DNA of 64,000 nt from Epichloe hybrida (lineage: Eukaryota; Ascomycota; Sordariomycetes; Hypocreales; Clavicipitaceae). How positions within the stretch are numbered: position 1 is the first letter of the stretch; each line of letters begins with the position of its first letter. The stretch is taken from contig JAFEKR010000017.1 in NCBI GenBank assembly GCA_019022495.1, forward strand, positions 620,001 through 684,000, in the 5' to 3' direction. Below are positions 22,117-30,679 of this stretch, piece after piece. The position numbers were made by a program, and so were the translations under genes. The notes beneath the pieces are model-generated. The model saw only the letters and a list, made by a program, of their open reading frames with translations. It had not been told where the DNA came from and did not search any database.

Positions 22117-25100
22117 CTAGCCTCCAGATCTTGTGAAAGCACGCAGGTTTTCTCTTGCCTGCGCAGTTTCGTCGTTGCCATCTGGCAAGGGCAAGAAGCC
22201 AACCTTGCTCAAGAATCCCGCGCTCTTCACCAGTGCCAACTTAAGCCTGGCAGGAGACGAAAGGCCACCAGTCCGCCAACTGTCTGCCCATTGAGACCTG
22301 GCGGTATCAGCCAGATCTTGGAGCATATCTGACAGCGCTCCGAGCGGATGTGTGTCTCTGTTTTTCTCTACATCCTGGCGAATTGCCGCCATCCACGTGC
22401 TCGAGTCTTTGCTCCTCAGGGCGTACCCTGTCGCGCGTAGAGTCTGCCAAAACTCGCCCATGGTGAGCCCGCCTTTGACTTGGGTCACAACGCCTGATGA
22501 ACGCCCCAATGAAGTTTCTATGACAGTCGTCGCCGTGGCAGCGGCATCGGCTATGGGGATCCAATTGTCGGACTCCTCGCCATTGATGACGCCTACCCGG
22601 ATACAGGCGGCGGCCATCCTCCACAGCCAGTCGTCAGCATTCGCGACACCTTCTGTCGGTGTGCCCACGACGAGACCAGGGCTGACAACTGCGAACTGAT
22701 CTCGTCTGCCTAGACCTCGCGCCGCAGCACGCTTAACCAGGGCCTCGGCGATAAACTTGGTCGCGGTGTAGCCGTTGGGGCTGTCGGCGAGCGCCTTTGC
22801 CACGTGCTCGTCGCGCTCGAGCTCAGGGTCGCAGCATCGCGCACTAGAAACGTAAACAACTCTCATGGAGGGGTTCTCAGCAGCCACGCGAAGGACCTGG
22901 GCGGTTGACTCGACGTTGGCCGCCTGGAGAGCAGAGTAGCTCTTCATGAAATGCACCGACGCCCCGTTGTGTATGAAAACATCCACAGTATTACCATCTG
23001 CAAGGGTGTTCCAGTTTTCTTTTTCGAGACCCAGTCTCGGCAGCGCCAAGTCTCCGCGCCATACCTCGAGCTCGCTGCTATAAAACTCGGACCACCACTG
23101 AGCGTTTTTCGCAGCGTCGATAACTCGCTGTCTGGCCTGGCTTGCAGAAGTACCCCTGACAATAGCAATCACACGACTGAAGCGGCCATGATCGAGAAGC
23201 TGGCGGAGAATCTGGGTGCCAATGAAGCCGTTGGCTCCCGTTAGCACAGCGGTGAGCCGAGTATCACGAATACCCCCGTGCGATGTCGCACTCAAACGCT
23301 TATTAGCAGCCTCAGACTGCGCCATGGCGATGGTGCAATCGCATCGGGCAAGGTCCGACAGAAGACGATCCGAAAAGACACCTTGCAAAGCAGCTTCTGA
23401 TTCAGAAACGCCCGCAGCTGCTGCCTGAAGCAAGTGGGCAATGCTGGTTGTGGAGTGACGGAACATGTCGGCCACCTCCAGCCTGATGCCTTCCTCCCGG
23501 GCCATGCTGACTACCTTCATGGCGCTGAGCGAGTTACCACCCAGTTTGATGAATCCATCGTCCAGACCAATCTGACTCGACTCGATATTCAGGACCTTTG
23601 ACCAGATCTGCTGCATCGCCCTCTCCGGTGCCGTTGATGGCAGTCGCTTCCTTGCCGTCGGCGGTGCCTTTTGCCGCAGGCTCTCAGACAACATGGAGCG
23701 ATCGATTTTGCCGCTGTGGTTGACCGGCATTTTGTCCAAGATCCTGATCGATTGCGGCACCATGTAAGAAGGCAGCTTGGATCGTAGCAGTTGCTCAAGT
23801 TCTCGGCGCATTTTGCTCTCGCGCTGCTGTTCCAGCGGGTTTGTGCTGAGCACATGGCAGGGCCGGCCTTCATGATCAGTGGGAAATCGGAACAAGGTCC
23901 TCCTCTCACTGTCTGTGCCACTCCCGCCGCGGTAGAAGACCGCGTCCAACCCACCGCGTTGTGAGTACTGTCGAGCCCAGCTGCATTCGACTCTGTAGCC
24001 CGCCAGCTGCGCAAGCTCGGCGAGATCAAAAGCACAGAGCGATGAGTGTTCCTGCGATGCCTGAAGAGCGGCTGCGAGCCATGCACTCTCGCACTCCGAC
24101 TCGGGAACCTTCTTGGACGCCTCGACAGCATTGACAATTTCTCTTTCGTAGATTGTCTTGCTGTAGGGGATGTTGCTTATGGCCACTCTGGATGCGGTGC
24201 CCAAGAGGCCCGATACGGCCTGACGGTCGAGACCGTTGGACACGTAGTCAACCCACTCGTCCGCACCAATATCCTGAGCGAGGCCATCTTTCGCCTGCTC
24301 TCCATGGGAATTGACATGCAACACCGCTGCGTAGCGGTAGCTGCTGAGCTCGTTGGTGGCCTTCATCCTCTTGGGTAAGATCTCGACATGTGTCACGCCA
24401 TGTATGCGGTGGGGCAAACTGGTGAAAAACCCAGGATCTAGAAGCAGCTCTGGCTCGCCTTTGAGGAGGTTCTCCATGATCCCACCGAACTCTTCCCGAG
24501 ATGCGTCTTTCCCGGCAATGTGCAGAGCACGCCTTGCCATGAACTCCTTGTGAAGCGCATGAGAGCGGATGTCACCTAGAAAGATGGTCTTGATGTTTCC
24601 CAAGCTGGCCAGATGCTGGATTATGTTGAAGAGATAGTCTTGGCTTGGGAAGTACTGGACGACGGAATTCATGACGGCAAGTTCGGAGTGGATGGGCATG
24701 TCGAGGTTCACGATATCCTCGGCTGTGCCCTTGAACACGTTGACCTTGTCTGCAAGATCCGGGATGGACTTGGCGGCTTTGATTGTAAAGTCGACAGCTC
24801 GCATGGCCGGATCCACGCCTATGTAGCTCTTCAGGCCGTGGTTGGCTAAATTGAAGAGCATCATGCCCGACCCGGACCCGATTTCGAAAACATGGCCAGC
24901 GGGCCCGCCGTTCAATATGGTAGCAATGGTGTCGTCCAGCCATTCGTTCATCTCAACTTTGTTTATCTCACTTCCATCGTACATGGACGACCACCCGATG
25001 AAGTCCCGTCCGATGTTTTCGGCCTCGGTGGCGCCGATGGCCAGATACGTTTCGCCGTCGAAATCTTCTTCCCAGGCCTGAATCCTTTTCTGCTTTAATT

Positions 25101-28100: not shown

Positions 28101-30679
28101 CTTCCATCTCGCAAGTCGGTTGCCTTTTTGGGCCATCCCGGCGGCCCGCCCTGGCTTCGGCGAGCTGCTCGGCGGAGAACGAGGAGCCTATTTTTCGCAG
28201 CATCCTTCGGTCCATCTTGCCGGTTGGCGTCATAGGCAGCGTTTCCATCCAGAAAGACACCGTGGGAACCATGTACGAGGGCAGATGCTGAGACAGCTTG
28301 GCCTGTACATCAGCTCGTACCGCCCGTATCTGGACGGAGCCTTCATTTGTTGCCGTCTTCTCGCCCATCTCCGGGGACTGTGCGAACACAGCCAAAGTTG
28401 GAACTGGGCTGGTGGCTCGAGGTTCTATAACTTCAGCAAAAACTCGCTGCGCTTCAGGCATGCAGACTTGGGTCCAATGCTCGACGTCGCCGAGATGCAC
28501 TCTCTGGCCGCGGATCTTCACCTGGGCGTCCTTCCGGCCCGAGTAGCTAAGACTTCCATCTGCACAGTATCGGACGAGGTCTCCGGTCTTGTACAGCCGA
28601 CCTTTCCGACCCGGGTGGCCGGAAACACCGCGCAACAGCCACTTGGGATCTTCGATGAACGAAGCGGCGGTCTTGATGGGGTCGCCAATGTATCCACGCC
28701 CGACTAGCGCACCTTCCACAAGCAGTTCCCCAACACAGCCGATTGGAACGAGTACTTGATCATTTTCCGGGTCTGTAATCCAAGCGGCCACTCCAACCGG
28801 CAGCCCTATGTTCGCAGCGGCTTCAGGACTGATAGGTCGGCTGTTGACAGTGTTGATGGTGCACTCTGCAGGCCCATATTCGTTGACGACGTCGACCTTT
28901 CCCCACCATCGGGTAGCATCGTCCACAGACAGAGGCTCGCCGGTAAACACCATCGTCTTGAGGACGGGTTGTGAATCTGGGTCTATCAGTCGCGTGACTG
29001 AGGGTGTTAAATGGGCAATCGTGACGCGCATGTCGGCCATGACCTTGGAGATGTTGTTGTGGCGGTCTTCATCGGAGGGAATGCACAAGCACGCTCCTGA
29101 TGTGAGAGTCGCAAACACGTTATGAACGGAGACGTCAAAGGCGTAGGAGGCAAAGTCAAATACTCTAGAATCCTTGGTGAAACCGAGTCGCTGAAGTTGA
29201 TAAGCGAGGGCGGAAGAGTAGTTTGTGTGCGTGAGTATCGCCCCCTTGGGCACTCCGGTGCTCCCGGAAGTGAAGACGGCGAACATTGCCGTCGATGAAG
29301 GCTGTGCGTTCCGAGCACGACTTGGATGCGCAGAAAATGATTTTACGGAGCAAGAGTCGAGCTCTACGACCCTCTTCAACAGTCTAGAGCTCAGCGACAT
29401 ATTCGAGGGGGAAGAGATCATCACGCTCGCGTTGACCTTTTCCACGATGGTTCTTAGGCGCTGCTCTGGAAACGAGGGCTCCAGAAGGGTAAACGCTCCG
29501 CCGGCCTTGAGAACACCCAACATGGCGACCGGCATCCACATGGATTTTTCGAAGCATAGCGGAACGATGGCCTCGGGCCCGACGTCCGCGTCTATGAGGT
29601 GGCCAGCCAGTTTCTCGGAGAGCTCATCCAGTTCCTTATAGGTCAATCGGCCGTCCCATGCATCGACTGCCAGGGCCAGTGGCTGCGAACAGACTTGATC
29701 TTCAAACATGTCGTGCATGCAGCGCTCCACCGCCGCAGGGAGAGTGCCGTTCCATTTCCATATTTGCTCCAGGTCGTCCGGTGACATGAGGTCGATTTCC
29801 GCTAGACGCGTTCCCGAGTCCGCTTCATGGAGCCCTCTCATGCAGAACTCTAGGCGTTTGAGAAGCTTGAACACAATCCGGCTCGGTGCACCTGGAGTCG
29901 GACATGGCTGTCGCTTGTAGCCGAGATCCTCGCAGCTGCAAGTCGAGCACCAAAGGGTAGCCCGCAAGGCTGGCAAGGCCGTTTCCGATGGCGCCATTGC
30001 TGCTTTTGGCGTCGCCGCTGGGCCTTGTAGCAATGAGAGTGCTCGATGTTGGATGTACTTTGCTTTTGCAGTCCGGCGAAGCCACACAGCTTTCCTCCTC
30101 GGAGCTGGCATATGCTCTCACGGCCTGCAGATACTCGCCAACAGTCTGACTAGAGACGCATAGGACACGCAATGGCCTCACCGCCGGCCGATCCGGCCTG
30201 CCGTCGATTGTGTCAAAGACAACTCGCTCCGAGCTCGTCATTCGGCTCGTCATGAGTGCCCAAGCAGCATGTACCAATGTCACCACAGCGCAGCAGTCAT
30301 CGCCTCGCTCTTGTGGATGATGGCCGGACGGCTGCCATGAAAATTCGTACCGAGTCTCGGTGTCCGCCGCTGGATAAATGACAGACGCCGGGAGACTGGG
30401 ATAGGCCGTGTACTCATCAACCTCGTCAAAAGGCTCCGCGTCCATTGGTGGTGGTGCCCACGAGATGGCGAGGCTGCCACGGCTGGGTGCACTCGGGCAG
30501 CCATCGGATACAACAGAGGAGCTCTCACAAGTCTCACTGTTGCTCGCGGCGGTGGCGTACTGGGCACTGTGATCGGTTGCCGTGTCTGTGGACGTCTCCA
30601 TCGTGGACTTGAATGAAGGAGCCGTCTGGCCACCTCTGTAAGTTTCGTTGGGCGCCATGGTCGATGGTGCTGTTGTCAA
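22117..30679 (-). CDS. perA-like: Two-module NRPS with terminal reductase, peramine/pyrrolopyrazine synthetase-like; N-terminal frameshift
   Basis: The predicted product is a dipeptide-derived pyrrolopyrazine such as peramine, an insect feeding deterrent. Domain order, with approximate positions on this strand: partial C (30350-29850); A1 (29740-28200; VFTSGSTGVPKG, EYGPAECT, YKTGDLVRY, PTGKMDRR); T1 (FHLGGDSIAS, Ser near 28010); C2 (27800-26560; VHHAIYDGWS); A2 (26480-23690; VFTSGSTGTPKG, AYGPSECT, YKTGDLVKY); an N-methyltransferase embedded in A2 (about 25060-24300; FEIGSGSGMM); T2 (KLGGNSLSAM, near 23535); and a thioester reductase R (23260-22150; LTGANGFIGTQILRQ, YTATK). This A-T-C-A-MT-T-R order is that of PerA/PpzA. 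The long frame is uninterrupted from about 29870 to the stop at 22117. The upstream piece, starting MTTAPSTMAPNETYRGG at 30679, is in another frame, and homology crosses over near 29868-29890. No intron resolves this, so an indel or sequencing error is likely. Internal ATGs such as 29841 could still start a product lacking the C remnant. Confidence 0.85.

What the first reader, a model, noticed from the sequence alone, without database searches (positions are those of the whole stretch)
22117..30679. PerA/PpzA-like pyrrolopyrazine synthetase locus
An 8.6-kb NRPS gene carries A-T-C-A-MT-T-R in order with both carrier serines, HHxxxDG, the SAM motif and the NAD(P)-reductase loop present. The methyltransferase sits inside the second A domain. 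This is the rare layout of peramine synthetase, long thought confined to Epichloë and later found as orthologues in a few Metarhizium species and a lichen fungus. The locus is embedded among core genes (Qcr6 on one side; an MFS gene and Erg27 on the other), which suggests a single-gene locus and not a large cluster.
Basis: partly seen in the sequence, partly recalled or inferred. Interest (0 to 1): 0.88.

Follow-up and report, generated by a model that had tools for sequence, protein, structure and literature searches.

The report
Grass endophyte's own peramine synthetase gene
This is the well-known gene with which Epichloë grass endophytes make the insect deterrent peramine, in a genome that looks like a hybrid and holds a second, unbroken copy, while the copy in this window has a shifted reading frame near its start; it is ordinary, with one small twist.

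Summary
The gene is real and the domain reading is right: A-T-C-A(MT inside)-T-R on the minus strand. The main open frame (22117-30117, 2666 aa) is 98.8% identical over 2586 aa to a protein filed as Epichloë peramine synthetase, so the window comes from Epichloë itself, the genus where perA/ppzA is best known. The genome (79.9 Mb, 156 contigs) looks like a two-parent hybrid. A second perA copy on contig C13 is 94% identical, lies in a collinear region and is open throughout; contig C138 repeats that stretch. R is present, so this is the peramine type (ppzA-1). Its N-terminal ~190 codons and the rest lie in different frames that meet near 29.88 kb, whereas P0002 and the C13 copy run through. 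This is probably a recent inactivating lesion, less likely an assembly error. Broken perA alleles and hybrids with several perA loci are in print. Verdict: already known gene, low interest.

The parts
22117..30117 (-). main open frame of perA/ppzA (2666 aa; coding match to PerA from residue 81 on), A1-T1-C-A2(MT)-T2-R
29825..30697 (-). N-terminal piece in another frame; matches PerA residues 1-189 (95%); no Pfam family at E <= 0.001
28138..29670 (-). A1 adenylation domain (P0001 150-660, boundaries set by me); pocket letters DVHHVTEIN, one letter off in Metarhizium PpzA
   Evidence: pocket positions recalled
27910..28098 (-). T1 carrier domain, LGGDS
26560..27780 (-). C condensation domain, HHAIYDG
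25459..26481 (-). A2 adenylation domain, N-terminal part; pocket letters DVSDTGAPT
   Evidence: pocket positions recalled
24148..25050 (-). methyltransferase inserted in A2, EIGSGSG (P0001 1690-1990, boundaries set by me)
23707..23826 (-). AMP-binding C-terminal part of A2, after the methyltransferase
23413..23640 (-). T2 carrier domain, LGGNS (P0001 2160-2235, boundaries set by me)
22567..23247 (-). R terminal thioester reductase (NAD_binding_4; TIGR01746 over its cut-off)
32468..34112 (+). divergent MFS transporter gene (mfsA position), in two frames
   Evidence: PMC8982410 passage
20366..20731 (+). Qcr6 (ubiquinol-cytochrome c reductase hinge protein) exon

Best explanation
The locus is one of two homeologous copies of perA (ppzA-1), the peramine synthetase gene of Epichloë, in what looks like a hybrid Epichloë genome. 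As established for PerA (literature, not shown here), A1 loads a pyrrolidine-type amino acid and A2 loads arginine; C joins them, MT methylates the arginine, and R releases the dipeptide, which becomes peramine. In this copy the frame of the N-terminal ~190 codons is shifted against the rest, so ribosomes starting at the normal ATG should stop soon after the shift and give no synthetase. If the lesion is real, peramine in this fungus would rest on the intact homeologue (C13). Shown: identity, domain order, synteny, the second copy, the frame break in this assembly. Inferred: loss of function, and reliance on the other copy. Confidence 0.97 for the gene's identity, about 0.7 for the frame break being biological.
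For: 98.8% over 2586 aa to Epichloë peramine synthetase P0002, against 57-58% to Metarhizium PpzA P0020/P0022. The neighbouring vigilin-type gene has its best hit in Epichloë bromicola at 95%, then Claviceps and Conoideocrella (86-88%) and Metarhizium (82-84%). The C13 copy is 94.5% identical in the main frame and open for 2870 aa; 15 aligned blocks of at least 150 bases tie C13 to window 1414-50127, the extent fetched. Two other pairs of core genes (RNA polymerase family PF00562) were compared and are 93.5% (best block, 3199 bases) and 96.3% identical. The frame break has no base run over 3 in 29850-29905, while both redundant contig pairs that differ have their single difference in a homopolymer of 12 or more, and the third pair, C13/C138, is identical over three 10-kb stretches. 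Open frames of 9379, 5804 and 4691 aa exist among other adenylating enzymes of this assembly. With C13 as outgroup, 24 amino-acid changes fall on the window copy against 5 on P0002 (binomial p 0.0005), as relaxed constraint would give.
Against: No reads were available, so an assembly error cannot be excluded. Some other NRPS matches in this genome carry stops inside (C35 twice, C91, C123), by introns, lesions or errors, not resolved. The main frame has no other stop, and dN/dS against C13 is 0.305, so any inactivation is recent. The 24:5 asymmetry is not seen in the N-terminal piece (3 window-only to 4 P0002-only of 187 sites), and 2 of the 24 changes hit sites invariant in 8 relatives, against 1 of 5 on P0002 and 4 of 116 on C13. 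Translation could in principle start downstream in the main frame and leave all catalytic domains. No chemistry or expression data exist here.
Confidence: 0.9

Rival explanations
1. The frame break is a sequencing or assembly error and both perA copies are intact and active.
For: The main frame is otherwise wholly open and under constraint (dN/dS 0.305). Two of three redundant contig pairs compared do show a single-base length difference.
Against: Those two differences sit in long homopolymers, and the break does not. C13 and C138 agree over three 10-kb stretches. Very long frames elsewhere are open.
Confidence: 0.27
2. The window copy still makes a working, shorter synthetase from an internal start codon, without the N-terminal piece.
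For: All catalytic motifs searched for lie downstream of the break, and the N-terminal piece matches no Pfam family at E <= 0.001.
Against: ATGs in the upstream frame would capture ribosomes (inference from the sequence). P0002 and C13 keep the N-terminal piece open, and relatives P0004/P0005/P0006 have a counterpart of 31-37% identity.
Confidence: 0.1
3. It is a different two-module NRPS-reductase that resembles PerA.
For: Other NRPS-reductases with related C, A2, MT and R domains exist (P0045, P0058, P0069, P0093).
Against: 98.8% identity to PerA; the tree separates those proteins with full support; their A1 letters differ (DNWMCQAVT).
Confidence: 0.01

Closest known systems
Epichloë peramine synthetase PerA / PpzA-1 (P0002; UniRef name gives A0A059UMT0)
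   Same: 98.8% over 2586 aa, same domain order, R present; divergent MFS neighbour as published
   Different: the window copy has its N-terminal ~190 codons in another frame and 24 private amino-acid changes in the main frame
Metarhizium rileyi / M. majus PpzA (P0020, P0022)
   Same: domains align throughout; A2 letters the same and A1 letters one off
   Different: 57-58% identity; a review describes them as part of a seven-gene cluster whose other genes are absent from Epichloë (PMC7776561, passage)
Epichloë ppzA-2 (R-less allele, diketopiperazines)
   Same: same gene (PMC8982410 and PMC8678516, passages)
   Different: the window copy has an R domain
Published broken perA alleles in Epichloë (LpTG-3 3' deletion and premature stop; E. 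scottii 2130-bp deletion)
   Same: perA judged non-functional (PMC4458015 and PMC8812020, passages)
   Different: different lesions; here a frame shift near the 5' end

Membership tests
PerA/PpzA peramine synthetase | A-T-C-A-MT-T-R order with MT inside A2 | tested here: met
   (MT Pfam score below its cut-off; MT region 60% identical to Metarhizium PpzA and 99% to P0002)
PerA/PpzA peramine synthetase | groups with PerA/PpzA in a tree | tested here: met
   100% SH-aLRT with P0002 and C13, inside an 11-row clade (100%) with Metarhizium PpzA; whole-protein tree, midpoint root; separate A1/A2/R trees not built
PerA/PpzA peramine synthetase | same A1 and A2 pocket letters | tested here: met
   pocket positions recalled, anchored on motifs
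ppzA-1 (peramine type) | R domain present with its motifs | tested here: met
functional perA | uninterrupted reading frame from the start codon | tested here: not met
   N-terminal and main frames differ in the window copy; C13 copy open
functional perA | peramine produced | not testable with these tools
   no chemistry
hybrid Epichloë | two diverged copies of core genes and collinear homeologous segments | tested here: met
   for one 49-kb segment and a few gene pairs; progenitors not identified

The most novel reading that the evidence does not exclude
Epichloë perA came by horizontal transfer from, or shared with, a lineage related to lichen-forming fungi. The synthetase is nearer to a Gallowayella lichen MAG protein and its unnamed close kin (68-69%) than to Metarhizium PpzA (57-58%), although Metarhizium is in the same family, while the neighbouring vigilin-type gene ranks Claviceps and Metarhizium first. 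The fork joining Epichloë (with unnamed P0009) to the lichen trio has 94% support, and Hirsutella falls between, so old duplication and loss is not excluded. In this hybrid one of the two inherited copies is now decaying. A lichen orthologue (Cladonia grayi) is already in print, so only the finer branching would be new.
Probability: 0.35. Interest if true: 0.35.

Novelty: already known. Interest (0 to 1): 0.13.

Why it matters
Peramine is an insect deterrent of grass endophytes used in pasture. If the frame break is real, PCR markers that test only for the presence of perA domains could call this allele functional when it is not, and the trait would rest on one homeologue. Otherwise the finding repeats a well-studied gene.

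Tried and rejected
Rejected: a non-Epichloë host (98.8% PerA match, and Epichloë best hit for the neighbour). Rejected: an R-less allele. Rejected: an intron as cause of the two frames, since P0002 and the C13 copy read through the same place without one. Led nowhere: the DNA search of the own genome was swamped by dispersed 5S-rRNA-like matches and did not list C13, so synteny was shown by fetching C13. Erg27 could not be confirmed. The species of Epichloë was not determined: I ran no nucleotide collection search (those offered hold phages, plasmids, E. coli, viruses and prokaryote genomes, and metagenome scans were capped at 0). Berry 2015 and Berry 2019 (PMC4375322, PMC6926027) are not held and are known only from citations in other papers. 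Of 25 papers listed by a search for hybrid Epichloë assemblies none holds the word; a second search listed two Epichloë papers among 15, not opened. Words printed with an accent cannot be searched, so these searches may miss papers. Dropped before counts: 99 of the 120 listed hits were not used in the tree.

Full report
What is there. The minus strand of 22117-30117 is one open frame of 2666 aa. Pfam finds two AMP-binding stretches, two carrier stretches, one condensation domain, AMP-binding_C, a weak methyltransferase (22.8 bits, cut-off 30) and NAD_binding_4. NCBIfam adds the thioester reductase domain model above its cut-off. Carrier serines, HHxxxDG, the SAM loop, the reductase loop and YxxxK are all present and in order.

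What it is. The search scored 7999 candidates and found 3628 proteins with E <= 0.001, of which the best 120 were listed. The first is 'Peramine synthetase, Epichloe' (P0002, 48 member sequences). The window's main frame is 98.8% identical to it over 2586 aa; P0004, P0006 and P0009 (no source name) and P0005 (a Gallowayella MAG; lichen-forming genus, recalled) follow at 64-69%, and Metarhizium PpzA at 57-58%. The adjacent vigilin-type gene has its best hit in Epichloë bromicola (95%), then Claviceps and Conoideocrella (86-88%) and Metarhizium (82-84%); among the 120 listed of 487 I saw no named lichen fungus. So the window comes from an Epichloë genome and the gene is perA/ppzA itself.

Tree. 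I chose 21 of the 120 listed proteins plus the window frame and the C13 copy (23 rows; quick method, midpoint root). The window groups with P0002 and C13 with full support, inside an 11-row clade that holds Metarhizium PpzA. MT-containing NRPS-reductases of Hymenoscyphus, Protoblastenia, Xylariales and Fusarium fall outside it. All 11 rows share the A1 letters DVHH(V/I)TEIN; the 12 outside rows differ (pocket positions recalled). Separate A1, A2 and R trees were not built. In each of 7 domain stretches P0002 is nearest (C13 ties it in T2), then C13, and the best non-Epichloë row is P0004, P0005 or P0006; below that the order varies, for example Hirsutella beats P0009 in C.

A hybrid genome. 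The assembly has 79.9 Mb in 156 contigs. Full-length perA occurs three times: the window (C66), C13 and C138. C13 and C138 (a 67-kb contig) are identical over three 10-kb stretches, so C138 looks like redundant assembly. C13 is collinear with the window from 1414 to 50127 in 15 blocks of 76-96% identity. Other pairs compared at locus level: RNA polymerase family PF00562, 93.5% and 96.3%; others 91-98%; plus two near-identical redundant pairs. This fits two parental subgenomes; the remaining PF00562 loci were not compared. Hybrids with several perA loci are in print: all three parents of E. coenophiala contributed peramine loci (PMC4978913, passage), and LpTG-2 strains have two copies of each gene tested, with complete perA (PMC4458015, passages).

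The frame break. The N-terminal piece (29825-30697) matches PerA residues 1-189 at 95%, and the main frame matches residues 191-2776; the two are in different frames and meet near 29.88 kb. P0002 and the C13 copy run through the same place. An intron is therefore not the cause. The stretch 29850-29905 has no base run over 3, whereas the single differences in the two differing redundant pairs lie in homopolymers of 12 or more, and open frames of 9379, 5804 and 4691 aa exist elsewhere. Against this, some other NRPS matches carry stops inside (C35, C91, C123), unresolved. I take the lesion as probably real (about 0.7). With C13 as outgroup, 24 changes are private to the window copy against 5 to P0002 (p 0.0005), but 2 of the 24 hit sites invariant in 8 relatives (1 of 5 for P0002, 4 of 116 for C13), and the N-terminal piece shows no asymmetry (3 to 4 of 187). 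dN/dS between the copies is 0.305. If real, the lesion is recent. Intact copies exist; no mend is given here.

How it works. PpzA-1 makes peramine, an insect feeding deterrent, and R-less PpzA-2 makes a diketopiperazine (PMC8982410, passage); A2 activates arginine and M methylates it (PMC8812020, passage). The rest of the route is recalled. The window copy has R. If the break is real it yields no synthetase and peramine depends on C13.

Neighbourhood. Qcr6 and a divergent MFS gene are supported; Erg27 is not confirmed. The divergent gene next to ppzA is published as mfsA, possibly unrelated to the pathway (PMC8982410, passage). A single orphan gene in Epichloë against a seven-gene cluster in Metarhizium and Cladonia is also published (PMC7776561, passage).

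Verdict. Identity is settled and ordinary; the frame break and the branching near lichen-type relatives are small extras. Papers were seen as search listings and passages only. I did not search specifically for this exact lesion in print.

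Noticed in passing
window 17019-17138 +: A 5S rRNA gene (Rfam RF00001, 81.6 bits) lies between protein genes; 41 of the 42 listed matches of the own-genome DNA search fall on this stretch, so 5S-like copies or pieces are dispersed.
   Followed up: yes
C13 homeologue, L026 1377-3353: The region of the MFS gene next to perA shows three main + strand open frames in the C13 copy but two in the window; introns or lesions, not resolved and not checked with Pfam.
   Followed up: no
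proteins P0004, P0005, P0006, P0009, P0026, P0028: PerA-like synthetases occur in a Gallowayella MAG, Hirsutella rhossiliensis and unnamed sources, and the Epichloë gene is nearer to the Gallowayella-type ones than to Metarhizium PpzA.
   Followed up: partly
proteins P0045, P0058, P0061, P0069, P0093, P0116: A group of longer NRPS-reductases (3255-3495 aa) shares the C, A2, MT and R domains and the A2 letters (one letter off in P0093 and P0116) but has another A domain in the A1 place (DNWMCQAVT); product unknown.
   Followed up: partly
G000 C13/C138, C4/C146, C69/C142: The assembly holds contigs that repeat parts of others nearly letter for letter; C138 and C142 are about 66 kb.
   Followed up: partly
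G000:C69 6197315-6275443: A tryptophan-dimethylallyltransferase-family gene lies between NRPS matches near the end of a 6.4-Mb contig, which looks like an ergot-alkaloid type cluster.
   Followed up: no
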